From positions 1-64,000 of the forward strand of contig CAILEM010000048.1 of the NCBI GenBank assembly GCA_903833215.1: DNA of 64,000 nucleotides, given 5' to 3'. The DNA is from an uncultured Armatimonadota bacterium (GTDB lineage Bacteria; Armatimonadota; Fimbriimonadia; Fimbriimonadales; Fimbriimonadaceae). Shown here one piece after another: positions 50,985-58,122 of this stretch. The notes under the pieces are model-generated. The model saw nothing but the letters and a program-made list of their open reading frames with translations, had not been told where the DNA came from and searched no databases. A program made the position numbers and the translations under genes. Position 1 is the stretch's first letter. Every line of letters begins with the position of its first letter.

Positions 50985-52352
50985 GCCAATTTCAAAACCC
51001 TCTTTAATTTGGCCTTGAGACCAGCCGGGAGGGAGCGATCAGCGCCGGTTGGATGTATGGAGGAGGTTGCTAAGCTGGTTTGGTCGATTGTTGACGTTTA
51101 GGTGCTGTAAGCAGGCGTATTCAAGTAGTCCCTGTGCTTTTGAGGGTTGCCTTTTGAGCTTTTTCTCGTAAGAATTTCAGATTCTCAAAATTCGGAGGGC
51201 GAATATGGTCAGCACACCGAACATGAGATGGGCGTGGACCTTTGGGGCTCCTCGAACGAAGATGAAGTTGCCTCCGTGATTGTCCTTGAGGTCAGAGTTA
51301 AATCTCTCGACCGTCGTTCGGTTCTCAAACCGTTTAGCCCGATCTGGAGTCATTTTAGAAGCGGGCTGGTCTTTGTGGTTTTTCTTGGGTGCGACGATTG
51401 CGACCTGGTCAAGAGCTTTGGCGGTACGCAGGATGGGCTCTCCCGGGTAGCCGCGGTCGAACAGGTTATAGAAGACTTGTCCGGTCCGCTCGGAGACCGC
51501 TTTCATCAAAGGGATCGCCCCAAGCGAATCGCTCATGCTCGCTGATGTAGTGAAGAATATCAAAGGAACTCCGCCGTCTCCCACGCTCACATGTCCCTTG
51601 TAGCCTCGCCAGTAGGATGGAAACCCCATTGAGCCGATCTTCACGCCGAAGTCACAAGCAGACGGAAACGCGGCAGCCGACTCTTGCCAGGTGCGAAGCT
51701 CTTGGAGTTCTTGTACCTTTGGAGGCAGGGGATACTCTTTGCGTCGCCGCTTACCTTGCTTGCGCTCGACCTTGGCTTTGGGCTTTGCCTTGGGCTTACG
51801 TACGGCTTGCTCACGCGCTGGCAACGCAGTTGAATCGTGAGAGACATGGTGAATGATGTCTTGACCAAGGTGGTGCCGCACATTCGCTTCTAACGTCTGG
51901 TCCAAGACGCCTGAGATCGAAAACTCCTCCAGCGCACGGCTGAAAGTCGATTCGCTCGGTACACCTCCCGTGAATCCGCAGATGCGCCGAAGCCGAGAAT
52001 CTACACCAAGACGTTCCACCAAGTCCTTGGTCGTTGGGATGTTCAAAACGGCTTTGGCAATAAACGCACGAGCAATCTGTTTCCGTGGAAGTTGGGGGCG
52101 ACCAAATGGCAAACAAGTTTGCGTGACTCGCTCCTCAATGCGAACGACTTCTAAGACCATTGCAACCTGCTGATGAGAAGGAAGAAGAGGGCCTGTCTCC
52201 TCCTCCAAGTAGCCAAACAGAGATCTTTGCAAATCCAGCCAAAACCGTGCTAATCTCCATCCAAGCTCGGACGCGTCCTGATCTATTTTCACAAAAATAT
52301 GGACGTGCCGGGCCTACCTAAAGACCCCATTATCGACTTCTGAAATTGGCTC
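50983..52352. mobile_element. Complete insertion sequence, DDE family, 12-bp inverted repeats, AGCT target duplication
   Basis: The element runs from GAGCCAATTTCA (50983-50994) to its exact inverse TGAAATTGGCTC (52341-52352), about 1370 bases. It is flanked by AGCT on both sides (50979-50982 and 52353-52356), a four-base target duplication. It carries one transposase gene (51177-52292, minus strand). Since AGCT is its own complement, the same data can be read as a 16-bp inverted repeat without duplication. The remaining ends (50995-51176 and 52293-52340) show no other gene. Confidence 0.8.
51177..52292 (-). CDS. IS4/IS5-superfamily DDE transposase
   Basis: This intact 371-residue transposase has the catalytic triad visible as IIHHVSHDSTALPAREQA (first Asp), YNLFDRGYPGEPIL (second Asp), and TTVERFNSDLKDNHGG (Glu). 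A KPKAKPKAKVERKQGKRRRK basic stretch lies between. GFTGGVPSESTFSRALEEF is the family's helix before the first Asp. The ends (12-bp inverted repeats and AGCT duplication) fit this superfamily, in which 4-bp duplications are common. The intact frame suggests recent insertion. Confidence 0.88.
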   Translation of the reverse strand: MKIDQDASELGWRLARFWLDLQRSLFGYLEEETGPLLPSHQQVAMVLEVVRIEERVTQTCLPFGRPQLPRKQIARAFIAKAVLNIPTTKDLVERLGVDSRLRRICGFTGGVPSESTFSRALEEFSISGVLDQTLEANVRHHLGQDIIHHVSHDSTALPAREQAVRKPKAKPKAKVERKQGKRRRKEYPLPPKVQELQELRTWQESAAAFPSACDFGVKIGSMGFPSYWRGYKGHVSVGDGGVPLIFFTTSASMSDSLGAIPLMKAVSERTGQVFYNLFDRGYPGEPILRTAKALDQVAIVAPKKNHKDQPASKMTPDRAKRFENRTTVERFNSDLKDNHGGNFIFVRGAPKVHAHLMFGVLTIFALRILRI

Positions 52353-53866: not shown

Positions 53867-54889
53867 ATGGTCCCGAAACCGATTCTGGCTCCTAGCCTCC
53901 TTCTCTTAGTTGCCTGTGCTTCGCCGCAGGCCTCTCCCCCTTCGAACGTCGACACAAACTCTTGGATTACCCGAGCTGTTGCAATCTGTCGTGCGCGTGA
54001 GTCGGTCTATGACAGGGCCAGAATTGAGTTCAAAACCTGGACACCGTCCACCGGCGAAGGCCGGTTTATTTGTGAGAACTGGCCAGGCCGACTCAATCTC
54101 TGGGAAGTAGAAAAAGGAAACCGCCGGTTAATCCTCAAATGCGAAGAGGGAAAGGTCTGGACAACGATGCCGGGCGCTATGAATGAGGGTCGCTTCGCCC
54201 TTTACTACGGAACGGAAGATCAAGGAAAAATCTCCCAAGTCTCGTCCATTATCCTCAACCCGCTCGTAACCGGGTGCCTGCTGGCGCCGGGCGTTACCGC
54301 TATGAGTCGTGCAATCTCAAGCGTGAAAGGTGCCAATGCAGAGGTCTCCGCTGGCCGCCTCACCTGCAATTTCACGCCATCGCCCGGGCTCTTTCCCAGG
54401 CAAACCCATTATCAACTTGAGCTTCCGTCAAATGGCGGTCCAGGCATCGTCACCTTTACGATTTCGACGGTGGGACTGCCTTCGCGCAAATACGTCAGCC
54501 GGTACTCGATCGACGGAAGGTTAAGCGGCAATGAACTTGAGGTGTCCGGTGGAAAATCGACAATCCTGTCCAAGGTCGAAATCCTCTCAGTTACCAAAAT
54601 GGCTGAGCCGCCGGCTCGATTGACGATGACCCACGGCCACCCATACTACGACACGGTCGTTCAAACGTACAGATATTGGGGCCTAAAGGCTGTCTTCCAA
54701 ACCAAAGAAGCAGAAAAGGTCTTGGCTGCGGCGAAGTTAAAGAAGCAGCTTACTTTGTCCAACGAGACGGCAAACCTCAATTGTGGCCAAGAGTCCCTTT
54801 ACTACCTTTCGAAGTTTATCGGCAAGCAGGGACTTGACGTAGACCAAAATCCGGCACCATTTGGGACGACCCTTGGCGACGTGGCTTAA
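53867..54889 (+). CDS. Lipoprotein with N-terminal half of a C39-like cysteine peptidase domain (stops early)
   Basis: The 340-residue product begins MVPKPILAPSLLLLVACASP, a lipobox LVAC with the lipidated Cys at residue 17. The middle part is beta-rich and LolA-like in style (FICENWPGRLNLWEVEKGNR), with no enzyme motif. From residue 300 the sequence ANLNCGQESLYYLSKFIGKQ reads as the N-terminal Cys-Gly motif of a peptidase C39-like domain. The frame meets TAA at 54887-54889 right after TTLGDVA, but the same frame then continues with the rest of the domain. The upstream part is intact and starts 118 bases after the GT4 gene. Confidence 0.65.
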   Translation: MVPKPILAPSLLLLVACASPQASPPSNVDTNSWITRAVAICRARESVYDRARIEFKTWTPSTGEGRFICENWPGRLNLWEVEKGNRRLILKCEEGKVWTTMPGAMNEGRFALYYGTEDQGKISQVSSIILNPLVTGCLLAPGVTAMSRAISSVKGANAEVSAGRLTCNFTPSPGLFPRQTHYQLELPSNGGPGIVTFTISTVGLPSRKYVSRYSIDGRLSGNELEVSGGKSTILSKVEILSVTKMAEPPARLTMTHGHPYYDTVVQTYRYWGLKAVFQTKEAEKVLAAAKLKKQLTLSNETANLNCGQESLYYLSKFIGKQGLDVDQNPAPFGTTLGDVA

Positions 54890-55120
54890 TTAGGCAGATC
54901 TAAAGGGTGGGACTGCCAAATTCTTCGATATGCGACCAGTGACTTGAGCTCCGTGGAGTTGCCCGCACTTTTCTCGGTCTCGCCGTCACACTTCGTCGTC
55001 GTTACGTCCCGAGATAGAGAAGGATATCTCCTCATAAGTCCTCCGTACGCCGTGCAAAGGCTAACGGCGGACAACCTCCAAGCGGTTTGGTCCGGATACG
55101 TGATGAGGATTCTCAATTGA
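54890..55120 (+). pseudogene. C-terminal half of the C39-like domain, in frame after the TAA
   Basis: In the same frame as the lipoprotein, after one TAA, come LGRSKGWDCQILRYATSDLS, then SPSHFVVVTSRDREGYLLIS and ADNLQAVWSGYVMRILN, ending TGA at 55118. HFVVV is the His strand of C39-like peptidases (His at 54989-54991); the usual DP after it is SP here. The TTG start of the next gene overlaps this TGA, as in a coupled operon. The simplest reading is one gene of about 416 codons cut by a single nonsense change, or a sequencing error. Stop-codon readthrough is a less likely possibility. Confidence 0.7.
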
Positions 55121-56019
55121 AGGCAAAAGCTCTAGTTTGGCCCATATTGGCGTTTTGCGTCGGATGTGTCGGGATGGTTGTCGCGACACGGTTGCACGCA
55201 AATCCAAGCGGGATGGTGAGAAGAGAATTCGGAACTGTGCCCCCGCTGAAAGATCTGGTCTTCAAGACCGCAGTGAACAACCCGAACAGTTTTCCGCTGA
55301 TCTTGGAGGGCTTTGATAAGGCTTGCGGATTGAGGGTCACCGTCGATGGCGGCGGGATCGTCCCCCCGAAAGGGAGGGTCGAAATGACGCTGACCGCTCG
55401 GACCAACACACTCGCCGGCCCAGGCGGAGCAACCTTCGAACTTACCGAGAATAAGCTTGGAAAACGAACAGTTGTCCCTTACGTCCTCTCGTGGCTGGTC
55501 GCGCCACATCCTTCCCTGTCTCAAGGTGAGATCTGGTTCTCAGGCGACGATGTTTCTCCCAAAGTGCTCCAGTTGATGAACGCCGACAGTGGAGACCGAG
55601 TCCTGTCTGTCCACGCGCCAAGCTGTTATTCAATTAGCGTGGAAAAAGAAGGAGTTACTGTGACTCCTTCCACCAAGTTTGAGGATCTCGTGCCGGGAAC
55701 CTTGGAGGTCGCGCTGCAAACCAGTGTCGGACCGGTCAACCTTTCGATACCCATTGATCGGGTGCCCATCCGCAGCAACGCAGTAAGTCCCGGCTACATC
55801 TTCCTTACTCCCGGAGAGACCAAGCTGGCGCAATTTGATCACGGAGATGAGACCTGGAAGGTTGAAAAGCAAGGACCCTACGCGACGGCTGAGATCCGCG
55901 GGAACACGATCACAGTAAAGGGTGGTCGCGCCGGAGACGATCATGAAGCGGCGATCTTCTTCCGCAGCTCCAAGGGTCAAACAGCGGAGTTGCACGCGTT
56001 TGTTGAAGGCTCCAAGTGA
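55117..56019 (+). CDS. DUF1573-like membrane-anchored protein
   Basis: From TTG 55117 the protein has 300 residues. One N-terminal helix (ALVWPILAFCVGCVGMVVAT) anchors an extracytoplasmic part whose start (MVRREFGTVPPLKDLVFKTA, then NNPNSFPLILEGFDKACGLR) fits a DUF1573/ASH-type Ig-like domain. Two such domains may be present, the second near LLQLMNADSGDRVLSVHAP. DUF1573 proteins often accompany secreted, disulfide-containing products in Planctomycetes and relatives. The start overlaps the previous TGA; its own TGA overlaps the GTG of the VKOR gene. The role is unknown. Confidence 0.7.
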   Translation: MKAKALVWPILAFCVGCVGMVVATRLHANPSGMVRREFGTVPPLKDLVFKTAVNNPNSFPLILEGFDKACGLRVTVDGGGIVPPKGRVEMTLTARTNTLAGPGGATFELTENKLGKRTVVPYVLSWLVAPHPSLSQGEIWFSGDDVSPKVLQLMNADSGDRVLSVHAPSCYSISVEKEGVTVTPSTKFEDLVPGTLEVALQTSVGPVNLSIPIDRVPIRSNAVSPGYIFLTPGETKLAQFDHGDETWKVEKQGPYATAEIRGNTITVKGGRAGDDHEAAIFFRSSKGQTAELHAFVEGSK

Positions 56020-56972
56020 AAATAGCCCGTTCCCTTGTTCTCGGCCTCCTTGGGATCTTTCTGATCTTGGCGTTCTGCGACCACTTCGGGATCGGATCAT
56101 TAACTTGCGGTGAAGGTTGCTCCGCCGCGACATCCGGATGGTTTGGATCGTTCGTGTTGGTTTTAGGCGCGGTTGCGCAGGGCGGATTAGTCTATTTGTT
56201 GGTCACGAACAAGGACCACGAGTTCAAAATCTTCTCCGGAATATGCGCTGCCGGCGGAGTTGCGCTCATCGGTCTGATGATCTTCTCCTTTCACTCGGTC
56301 TGTCAGACTTGTGCAGGATTTGACGTGACGATGCTCATTCTATGGGTGTCAAATTGGTGGTCCGGAAAGGCGAAGTTCGCGCTGATCCCGACAGCATTGA
56401 TCCTTTCCGTCCTACCCGGCATTGTGCTCTTTGAAAGGTTCGCACCCAAATCGGCGGCTGCGAACGAATCTCCCGACATCGCAAGGTACGAGGGAGAGAC
56501 CCTTGATCCGATGCGCACCAACCTCATCGTCTTCGCAGACCCTAATTGCCTTCATTGCCGAAAGCTTGTTGAAAAGCTACTTGCCAATAACAAGCAATAC
56601 CAAGTGTTTGATCGCTGGGTGGTGTTTGAGCCACCGATGGAAAGCGGAAGACGCGTCGCTGCAATTATCGCTGCTTTACAATCCCGCGGTGACCGTTTTG
56701 CAACACCCTTGCTGCGCGATCTTTCGTCGTCGCAAGGTGAGTTTACGGATCATCAACTCGTCACTTTTGCCGAGAACATCGGCATCTCCGAAAAAATGAA
56801 AGCGATGCTTGTGAATCTTCCGCAGGACGGTGTAAATCGGCTAATGGAAGACGCCAAGAGCGCATCGCAGTGCAGGATCACCAAGGTACCTGCCGTTTAC
56901 TTAATATTAGGAGAAGGTGGTTCAGGTAAAGGCTGGAACATCGTGCCTGACGATCAAGTTGTTAGCGAATAG
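56016..56972 (+). CDS. VKOR-like/thioredoxin fusion, disulfide-forming membrane enzyme
   Basis: This 318-residue protein begins at GTG 56016. The N-terminal half has four hydrophobic helices with loop cysteines (LTCGEGCSAATSGWFG) and a redox motif FHSVCQTCAGFDV, the CxxC of vitamin-K-epoxide-reductase homologs that pass electrons to quinones. The C-terminal half is a DsbA/thioredoxin-like domain (NLIVFADPNCLHCRKLVEKL with CLHC; cis-Pro region ITKVPAVYLI). Such fusions oxidise proteins in the periplasm by themselves. It lies 22 bases before the gene of an 8-Cys small protein, which is its most obvious substrate. Confidence 0.82.
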   Translation: MKIARSLVLGLLGIFLILAFCDHFGIGSLTCGEGCSAATSGWFGSFVLVLGAVAQGGLVYLLVTNKDHEFKIFSGICAAGGVALIGLMIFSFHSVCQTCAGFDVTMLILWVSNWWSGKAKFALIPTALILSVLPGIVLFERFAPKSAAANESPDIARYEGETLDPMRTNLIVFADPNCLHCRKLVEKLLANNKQYQVFDRWVVFEPPMESGRRVAAIIAALQSRGDRFATPLLRDLSSSQGEFTDHQLVTFAENIGISEKMKAMLVNLPQDGVNRLMEDAKSASQCRITKVPAVYLILGEGGSGKGWNIVPDDQVVSE

Positions 56973-56994
56973 CGATCGACAAGGAAATTGACAA

Positions 56995-57405
56995 ATGAAG
57001 AAGTCTATGAACGTCTTCAGCGCCTTGGGCGCTGGGTTGGTAGTGGGTGCCGGAATGATGGTGGGTGCAGCGAATATGCATTCGCGTCCACAAGTGGTAG
57101 GCGACAAAGAGGCTGGCAAGGTCAAGGGGGGAGACATATTCTCCGCCTGCAGCTTCCCTACCTGCAACTCATACGGAACCTGCAGTACCGGATTTGGCGG
57201 TGAATACTATTCAGACCCGGTCAGCACTACAAAGAGCTGTACGGCTGCCTCATACCCTTACTGCGGCGATCAGCCGAAGAAGGTGACTTGCGTTTACCAG
57301 GTGTACTCTGATAGATTGTGCACTGTTCATAGCGGTACGCAGTCGATAACCAGTCCCTACTGCGCACTCCTGACGGCTACTGCAACGTCAACTGTAGCAG
57401 GCTAA
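56995..57405 (+). CDS. Small cysteine-rich exported protein with double-glycine leader
   Basis: This 136-residue protein has a good ribosome site (AAGGAAA). Residues 1-30 form a Sec-like signal (MKKSMNVFSALGAGLVVGAG...). Residues 35-46 read VGDKEAGKVKGG, which matches the double-glycine leader rule: hydrophobic at -12, Glu at -8, small hydrophobic at -7, Val at -4 and GG at -2/-1. The rest, about 90 residues, has eight Cys (FSAC, PTC, GTC, KSC, YPYC, VTC, DRLC, SPYC) and is rich in Ser, Thr and Tyr. I know no family. Its place after the VKOR fusion and the C39-like gene suggests oxidative folding and proteolytic maturation outside the cell membrane. Confidence 0.75.
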   Translation: MKKSMNVFSALGAGLVVGAGMMVGAANMHSRPQVVGDKEAGKVKGGDIFSACSFPTCNSYGTCSTGFGGEYYSDPVSTTKSCTAASYPYCGDQPKKVTCVYQVYSDRLCTVHSGTQSITSPYCALLTATATSTVAG

Positions 57406-57465
57406 TTAGCAGTGGGCTTTGACAAAACTTCGTTCCGCTCAAGGCCCAGGTGCTCGCTGGACAAC

Positions 57466-58122
57466 ATGATGATTAAACAGAACCCACAAATAGGAGCTAG
57501 TCGAGCCTTTACGTTGATTGAGCTCATGGTAGTAATGGCGATTATTGCCATACTTGCCTCTATCTTGATGCCGGTCTTTGCCAGCGCTCTCGAACGTGGC
57601 AAGCAGGCGTCGTGCCTGGAGAATCTCCATCAATTAGATCTCTCAATAACCCTTTACTCAAATGATTCGGATGGATTTGCTCCATGCTATACGTCGAACG
57701 AACTGTTTCTTTCTAACGGCGGTCCGCTGCCTTCGAACTCCGATGATCCGAAGCTGCTTACACAAGTCATAAATCCGTATCTAAAGTCGAAGCAGGCTTG
57801 GTTCTGCCCAAGCGATAGGATGGTGAGCAAGCCTGTTTTCTATCTCGGAATCGTCCACACCTACATGAGCTACAACGTAGTTACATTCGATCCCGTTGAC
57901 CGCGGCGGATTACCTCATTTGAACCTCGATTCGGCGCCTACCGGCAAATTCCTCGTTGGCGACGCGGTCGCCCCATTGTTCGACTCCGATTCGGTGTTCG
58001 TTACCGGCGAACCCCCGTATCCATCGCTTTCCAACCACGGTGCCACGATTTCCCAATACGTTAATGTTGGAGGTTCAGCTTTGCGTGTGAGCCCACGATT
58101 CCTTTCAGGCGCGTTGTACTAA
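57466..58122 (+). CDS. Pseudopilin-like protein next to the cysteine-rich protein gene
   Basis: From ATG 57466 the protein has 218 residues: a short leader, SRA/FTLIELMVVMAIIAILASI with Glu5, and PVFASALERGKQASCLENL. The body contains FCPSDRM and SLSNHGATISQYVNVGG, as in DUF1559-type or H-x9-DG-like pseudopilins of this phylum. The cleavage residue before Phe is Ala in place of the usual Gly, which some peptidases accept. It follows the cysteine-rich gene by 60 bases and may be a substrate or scaffold in the same export process. Confidence 0.7.
   Translation: MMIKQNPQIGASRAFTLIELMVVMAIIAILASILMPVFASALERGKQASCLENLHQLDLSITLYSNDSDGFAPCYTSNELFLSNGGPLPSNSDDPKLLTQVINPYLKSKQAWFCPSDRMVSKPVFYLGIVHTYMSYNVVTFDPVDRGGLPHLNLDSAPTGKFLVGDAVAPLFDSDSVFVTGEPPYPSLSNHGATISQYVNVGGSALRVSPRFLSGALY

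What the first reader, a model, noticed from the sequence alone, without database searches (positions are those of the whole stretch)
53867..57405. Possible new export and folding system for a GG-leader, 8-cysteine protein
Four tightly packed genes, three joined by start/stop overlaps, encode a lipoprotein with a C39-like cysteine-peptidase domain, a DUF1573-like anchored protein, a VKOR-thioredoxin fusion and an 8-Cys exported protein with a canonical double-glycine leader. C39 peptidases normally cleave GG leaders in the cytoplasm as part of an ABC exporter. Here no such transporter is present and the peptidase domain is on a lipoprotein, so cleavage would happen outside the membrane, on the same side as disulfide formation. 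Such a layout is not one I know. A glycosyltransferase and an epimerase flank the set, which recalls glycocin clusters.
Basis: partly seen in the sequence, partly recalled or inferred. Interest (0 to 1): 0.9.

Follow-up and report, generated by a model that had tools for sequence, protein, structure and literature searches.

The report
Exported double-glycine peptidase set, one gene interrupted
A four-gene set in a Fimbriimonas-like bacterium pairs a protein-cutting enzyme normally found inside the cell, on an export pump, with a small disulfide-rich protein that is exported by its own signal and carries the enzyme's cut site; relatives across the phylum show the same pairing outside the cell membrane, although in this genome the enzyme gene carries a stop codon.

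Summary
The four genes are real and conserved: two other Fimbriimonadaceae (L010/G037, L012/G012) keep the same order, often with 4-bp overlaps. The product made here ends before the catalytic His, so this copy is either broken or a base error; both relatives are intact. The interpretation generalises. Across Armatimonadota, exported transporter-free C39 proteins (often C39-DUF1573 fusions) sit beside small Cys-rich proteins whose signal sequence runs into a canonical GG leader (L-12 18/20, T/S-11 18/20, E/D/Q-8 17/20, hydrophobic -4 19/20, G-2 18/20). The same site lies in trans on RHS proteins next to TPR-C39 genes, and in cis just after a C39 domain in other RHS proteins. The window genome has no C39-ABC exporter. 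Best reading: a Sec-dependent, transporter-free variant of double-glycine maturation acting outside the cytoplasmic membrane, here with a VKOR-thioredoxin partner. Cleavage is inferred, not shown, and these C39 domains lack the usual Gln before the Cys. The glycocin comparison is not supported. I found no literature describing the arrangement, in an open-access library only.

The parts
53867..54889 (+). Gene 1 as it would be translated: lipoprotein signal (MVPKPILAPSLLLLVAC), unassigned N-terminal domain, first part of the C39 domain with the catalytic Cys codon at 54782-54784; ends at an in-frame TAA
54887..54889 (+). In-frame TAA inside the C39 domain of gene 1
   Evidence: 1 TAA inside; 1 TAA inside
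54890..55120 (+). Rest of the C39 domain in the same frame, with the catalytic His codon at 54989-54991 and Ser in place of Asp at 55037-55039; not translated unless the stop is read through or is an error
55117..56019 (+). Gene 2: membrane helix plus DUF1573-like (HYDIN/PapD-like) Ig domains; TTG start with 4-bp overlap, as ATGA in L010; an upstream TTG at 55087 is also possible
56016..56972 (+). Gene 3: VKOR-thioredoxin fusion (Cys pair, CxxC, Trx CxxC)
56995..57405 (+). Gene 4: small exported protein with 8 Cys after the GG site
57097..57132 (+). GG leader of gene 4, positions -12 to -1 (VGDKEAGKVKGG), proposed cut after 57132
57412..58122 (+). Prepilin-like protein (N_methyl) following the set; one also follows the set in L010, and one lies beside the cassette in L105

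Best explanation
The set encodes a Sec-dependent, transporter-free maturation pathway. Gene 4 is exported by an N-terminal signal sequence. The propeptide that remains is a short GG leader (hydrophobic at -12, acidic at -8, hydrophobic at -7 and -4, G at -2/-1), which is read and cut by a C39 peptidase that is itself exported (gene 1). The VKOR-thioredoxin fusion (gene 3) forms disulfides in the Cys-rich core on the same side of the membrane, and the DUF1573-like Ig protein (gene 2) anchors or presents the peptidase or its substrate. Shown by sequence: the genes, their conserved order, the leader signature, the C39 fold, and the absence of a C39-ABC exporter in this genome. Inferred: cleavage at the site, its location, disulfide formation, the role of gene 2, and the fate of the product. 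In the window genome the peptidase gene carries an in-frame TAA, so this copy is probably inactive or recently broken, unless the base is an assembly error.
For: Same gene order in G037 and G012; in G012 the VKOR gene overlaps the small gene by 4 bp. Twenty small Cys-rich proteins next to exported C39 genes in 11 genomes carry the site directly or shortly after an N-terminal hydrophobic segment: L-12 18/20, T/S-11 18/20, E/D/Q-8 17/20, M/L-7 15/20, V/I/A/L-4 19/20, G-2 18/20. This matches the published C39 consensus L-12-X3-E-8-L-7 and the -4/-7/-12 pockets of LahT (PMC6363468; PMC10885120). All 20 sites are the best window of their protein under leave-own-genome-out scoring. Of 40 exported stand-alone C39 genes, 21 (one doubtful) have a same-strand signal-bearing neighbour scoring >=9 within 2.5 kb; none has one on the opposite strand among the listed top neighbours, and none of the 4 C39-ABC genes has one. 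A profile of the leader alone found further members in genome-wide scans, most beside the same companion genes. C39 plus GG site occurs in cis in RHS proteins and in trans on RHS proteins in the window genome itself. No PF03412 hit in G000 is an ABC exporter. The AF2 model of the intact relative's C39 domain matches 6mpz, a double-Gly protease with bound leader: Z 16.8, 119 residues, rmsd 2.0.
Against: The TAA at 54887 removes the catalytic His from the product in this genome. Exported C39 domains lack the Gln six residues before the Cys that all four C39-ABC proteins here keep (Q in 3 of about 48 against 4 of 4); that Gln may be dispensable (4.3 A from the oxyanion in LahT), but activity is unproven. 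The sites of the window set and its two nearest relatives are among the weakest (leave-out scores 7.1-8.6 against 13-25 for most), and L012 has GQ. No signal-peptide predictor was available. Seed proteins were first picked by eye near C39 genes, so the PSSM is not fully independent. VKOR next to the set is restricted to these three genomes, so the disulfide step is lineage-specific at best.
Confidence: 0.72

Rival explanations
1. The exported C39 domain binds the leader helix but does not cut it, acting as a docking or chaperone module like the C39-like domain of HlyB; the GG signature is then a binding tag.
For: Loss of the Cys-6 Gln in nearly all exported C39 domains; Asp replaced by Ser or Asn in several, the window included; the -1 residue varies (G, A, T, Q, R).
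Against: Cys and His are kept in nearly all exported C39 domains, whereas C39-like docking domains lose the Cys (own knowledge of HlyB). Small residues at -2/-1 are conserved, which matters for cutting more than for helix binding.
Confidence: 0.15
2. In this genome the set is a decaying remnant: the peptidase is dead and the small protein is exported but not matured at the GG site.
For: Single in-frame TAA before the catalytic His; weak leader score; a transposase gene nearby. Compatible with the best explanation as a statement about this copy only.
Against: The frame is open to its natural end with an unchanged codon-position GC profile; genes 2-4 are intact; a single-base assembly error in a 168-contig draft is possible.
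Confidence: 0.55
3. A glycocin-like or other bacteriocin cluster whose exporter lies elsewhere in the genome.
For: Glycosyltransferase and epimerase genes flank the set; Cys-rich product with a GG leader.
Against: No C39-ABC protein in G000; the glycosyltransferase is a generic group 1 family member; L010 has no sugar genes next to the set; a Sec-type hydrophobic segment precedes the leader.
Confidence: 0.04
4. A general envelope disulfide operon in which the GG-like stretch is chance.
For: The leader matches of the window and its two nearest relatives are modest (9, 16 and 32 of 2000 shuffles).
Against: Position-specific conservation across 20 proteins in 11 genomes, unseen members found by the profile, and the cis arrangement in RHS proteins.
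Confidence: 0.06

Closest known systems
Peptidase-containing ABC transporters (PCAT/AMS: ComA, PCAT1, LahT, CvaB) with GG-leader peptides
   Same: C39 fold (6mpz Z 16.8), Cys and His, and a leader signature at -12/-8/-7/-4/-2/-1
   Different: No ABC transporter; peptidase and substrate each appear to be exported by their own signal; the usual Gln before the Cys is missing; often fused or coupled to DUF1573; also paired with RHS proteins
Extracellular leader peptidases of lanthipeptides (NisP, CylA; subtilisin family)
   Same: Leader removal outside the cytoplasm by an exported protease (PMC10885120)
   Different: Serine proteases acting on peptides exported by ABC transporters; different cut motifs
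VKOR-DsbA disulfide-forming fusions
   Same: Gene 3 has the VKOR Cys pair and CxxC plus a thioredoxin domain
   Different: Divergent; no Pfam VKOR match; coupled to a single small-protein gene
Glycocin clusters
   Same: Cys-rich product, GG leader, a glycosyltransferase nearby
   Different: No PCAT; generic glycosyltransferase; not conserved in relatives

Membership tests
Peptidase C39 (PF03412) domain family | Profile match over the curated cut-off and C39 fold | tested here: met
   31.4 bits against 22 on the read-through translation; fold of the intact relative Z 16.8 to 6mpz
Peptidase C39 (PF03412) domain family | Catalytic Cys and His in one translated product | tested here: not met
   In the window the His lies after an in-frame TAA; met in L010 and L012
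Peptidase C39 (PF03412) domain family | Gln six residues before the Cys (oxyanion) | tested here: not met
   3 of about 48 exported C39 domains against 4 of 4 C39-ABC proteins
PCAT/AMS exporter | C39 fused to ABC transmembrane and ATPase domains | tested here: not met
   Gene 1 and the other three C39 proteins of the genome lack them
Double-glycine leader peptides | Hydrophobic -12, -7 and -4, acidic -8, small -2/-1 | tested here: met
   Window V-12 by the alignment is G-12 with V at -13, E-8, A-7, V-4, G-2, G-1; family table; window weaker than most
Double-glycine leader peptides | Leader at the N-terminus, no Sec signal before it | tested here: not met
   Hydrophobic signal-like segment before the leader in the window and nearly all relatives
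VKOR-DsbA fusion | VKOR-type membrane domain with Cys pair and CxxC, plus Trx with CxxC | tested here: met
   hhalign Prob 99.7, E 9e-26 over 270 columns; conserved Cys
DUF1573 (PF07610) | Pfam match over the cut-off | tested here: not met
   No Pfam match for gene 2; profile-profile Prob 96.3, E 1.9e-9 and HYDIN/PapD-like fold Z 9.5 make it a remote relative
Glycocin cluster | Dedicated glycosyltransferase conserved with precursor and PCAT | tested here: not met
   Group 1 glycosyltransferase not conserved beside the set; no PCAT
Functional double-glycine protease | Cleavage after the GG site | not testable with these tools
   Needs biochemistry or mass spectrometry

The most novel reading that the evidence does not exclude
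Armatimonadota, and perhaps other phyla, run a second, topologically inverted double-glycine pathway: Sec-exported C39 peptidases without any transporter mature Sec-exported substrates outside the cytoplasmic membrane, in trans on disulfide-rich small proteins and RHS proteins and in cis within C39-RHS fusions.
Probability: 0.62. Interest if true: 0.85.

Novelty: new variant of a known kind. Interest (0 to 1): 0.76.

Why it matters
C39 peptidases and double-glycine leaders are treated as a cytoplasmic, transporter-coupled process. A phylum-wide set in which the same leader code sits directly or shortly after a Sec-type signal, with the peptidase also exported, would separate leader cleavage from ABC transport. 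It would give a sequence signature for finding a hidden class of secreted, disulfide-rich proteins and processed RHS proteins, and would supply stand-alone GG proteases that can be tested in the periplasm of laboratory E. coli.

Tried and rejected
Glycocin reading: rejected (no C39-ABC exporter, flanking sugar genes not conserved). The catalytic Asp to Ser change as a sign of decay: rejected, because Asp, Asn and Ser all occur in intact relatives. LolA/RseB-like assignment of the gene 1 N-terminal domain: not supported (hhalign E 0.11; AF2 of that part had pLDDT under 50); left unassigned. Companion proteins in other cassettes look LolA-like, but Pfam is below its cut-off (18.3 against 30 bits). 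VKOR as a general partner: rejected, found beside the set in only three genomes; MauE replaces it in G002. Paper searches on C39 with DUF1573, VKOR, RHS, Armatimonadota or export found nothing on the arrangement.
Full report
OBSERVATION. The window is the first 64 kb of a 114-kb contig of a 6.2-Mb, 99.97% complete genome. The region holds, in order, a C39-domain gene, a DUF1573-like gene, a VKOR-thioredoxin fusion, a small 8-Cys protein and a prepilin-like gene. Genes 1/2 and 2/3 overlap by 4 bp (TTGA, GTGA), genes 3/4 are 22 bp apart, and the prepilin gene follows 6 bp later.

CORRECTION. Gene 1 is interrupted. Its ORF ends at TAA 54887-54889, and the reading frame then continues, open and homologous, to 55120. 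The catalytic Cys codon (54782) lies before the stop and the catalytic His codon (54989) after it. Relatives have Ser or Thr at the stop column. Codon-position GC is the same before and after (0.54/0.48/0.61 and 0.53/0.46/0.61), so this looks like one recent nonsense change or a base error, not an eroded gene. The Asp-to-Ser change downstream is within family variation.

IS THE SET CONSERVED? In 101 relatives genes 1-3 each found clear counterparts in G012 (same genus) and G037 (same family), side by side. Their small genes are too divergent for a sequence search but lie at the expected place: L010 9367-9762 (AELDLVVGG, 8 Cys) and L012 2492-2866 (EDEAGNIAGQ, 9 Cys; 4-bp overlap with the VKOR gene). 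By record title G012 and G037 are Fimbriimonas sp. MAG_BO249 and 'Chthonomonadaceae' H1_ARM1. The only scan of the genome collection returned just these two.

THE WIDER PATTERN. A profile of gene 1 hit C39 domains in 50 of 291 Armatimonadota genomes, and most are not exporters. Many are exported C39-DUF1573 fusions, with both Pfam cut-offs exceeded. About 1 kb upstream on the same strand stands a small Cys-rich protein whose N-terminal hydrophobic segment is followed, usually at once, by LTxxEMxxVxGG. Examples: ASVLTIDDMAKVEGG|C, SAILSTADMESIQGG|C, ARLLTSEDLAALHGG|T, MELLTDEQLAVVRGT|D, SRPLTRAEMNLTRGA|G. Over 20 such proteins the positions match the C39 leader code. The published code is Leu-12-X3-Glu-8-Leu-7 with hydrophobic pockets for -4, -7 and -12 (PMC6363468; PMC10885120). 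In the window itself the site reads V-13 G-12 ... E-8 A-7 ... V-4 ... G-2 G-1, a weaker match than most.

CONTROLS. With a matrix trained without the protein's own genome, the assigned site is the best one in all 20 proteins. Most exceed nearly every one of 2000 shuffles; the window's score is reached by 9 shuffles, L010 by 16 and L012 by 32. Among 214 other signal-like ORFs in the fetched loci, most of the highest scorers turned out to be further C39-adjacent proteins (two of the list are seed proteins with another start codon). Of 40 exported stand-alone C39 genes, 21 (one doubtful; several of the rest at contig edges) have a same-strand neighbour at score >=9. No opposite-strand neighbour in the listed top pairs reaches it, and none of four C39-ABC genes has one. 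A genome-wide search with the leader profile alone found unseen members beside the same companion genes in G282, G206, G288 and G259, and a Cys-rich one at a contig end in G099. The seed set was picked near C39 genes, so only these later hits are independent of that choice.

RHS PROTEINS. In the window genome the other three C39 proteins are TPR-C39 proteins. Two adjoin RHS/YD-repeat proteins whose N-terminal region carries RLLSNHEMAQRHGR or RRMTDKELTTLQGR. In other Armatimonadota TPR-C39 is the N-terminal part of the RHS protein itself, and shortly after the C39 domain comes LSQQELASAWGG, LSMADLENAWGG or LSPEELRNAWGG; 5 of 8 score >=9. Peptidase and site in one exported chain is hard to explain unless the site belongs to the peptidase.

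STRUCTURE. The C39 domain of the intact L031 protein was modelled at pLDDT about 67-84 and its best PDB matches are 6mpz (double-Gly protease with leader, Z 16.8), ComA and PCAT1; the N-terminal 290 residues were not modelled reliably. Gene 2 is a membrane helix followed by Ig domains, the first closest to HYDIN/PapD-like folds (Z 9.5). Gene 3 matches VKOR-DsbA relatives.

MECHANISM. Shown: gene content, order, leader code, fold, and no C39-ABC exporter in this genome. Inferred: Sec export of both partners, cutting after the GG site outside the membrane, oxidation by the VKOR-Trx protein, and scaffolding by the DUF1573-like protein. The main caution is that exported C39 domains lack the Gln six residues before the Cys that all C39-ABC proteins here keep. 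In LahT that Gln is 4.3 A from the oxyanion and the His may take its role, so its absence does not rule out activity.

KNOWN OR NEW. The review read here describes C39 leader cleavage in transporters. Searches for C39 together with DUF1573, VKOR, RHS or Armatimonadota returned nothing on this arrangement; the library holds open-access papers only, so absence there is weak evidence. I file it as a new variant of double-glycine maturation.

VERDICT.

Noticed in passing
L136 6448-7584 and 2245-6441; L137 1641-2633 and 2630-6844 (window genome, other contigs): TPR-C39 exported proteins next to RHS/YD-repeat proteins that carry a GG-type leader motif near the N-terminus, with a Gly-rich protein gene on the other side.
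   Followed up: partly
L068, L075, L090, L091, L093, L097, L102: RHS/YD-repeat proteins with an internal TPR-C39 domain followed at once by a GG site (often GGCCG): possible self-processing in cis.
   Followed up: partly
L067, L069, L071: cNMP-binding domain fused to C39-ABC exporters of about 1000 aa, the true PCATs of the phylum, which keep the Gln before the Cys.
   Followed up: no
L105 8279-8722: MauE gene beside the cassette of G002 (same genus), where the window set has VKOR-Trx.
   Followed up: partly
L012 6008-7294 and 346-2400: TPR protein with a sub-threshold GT9 match overlapping the C39 gene by 4 bp, and a TPR-sulfotransferase downstream: possible sugar or sulfate modification near the set.
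   Followed up: no
window 51177-52292: DDE transposase gene just upstream of the glycosyltransferase gene.
   Followed up: no
L010 6200-6300: The start of the C39 gene in G037 lies in a short tandem repeat (GCATTGGGC...), so its export signal may be hidden by a frameshift or assembly error.
   Followed up: partly
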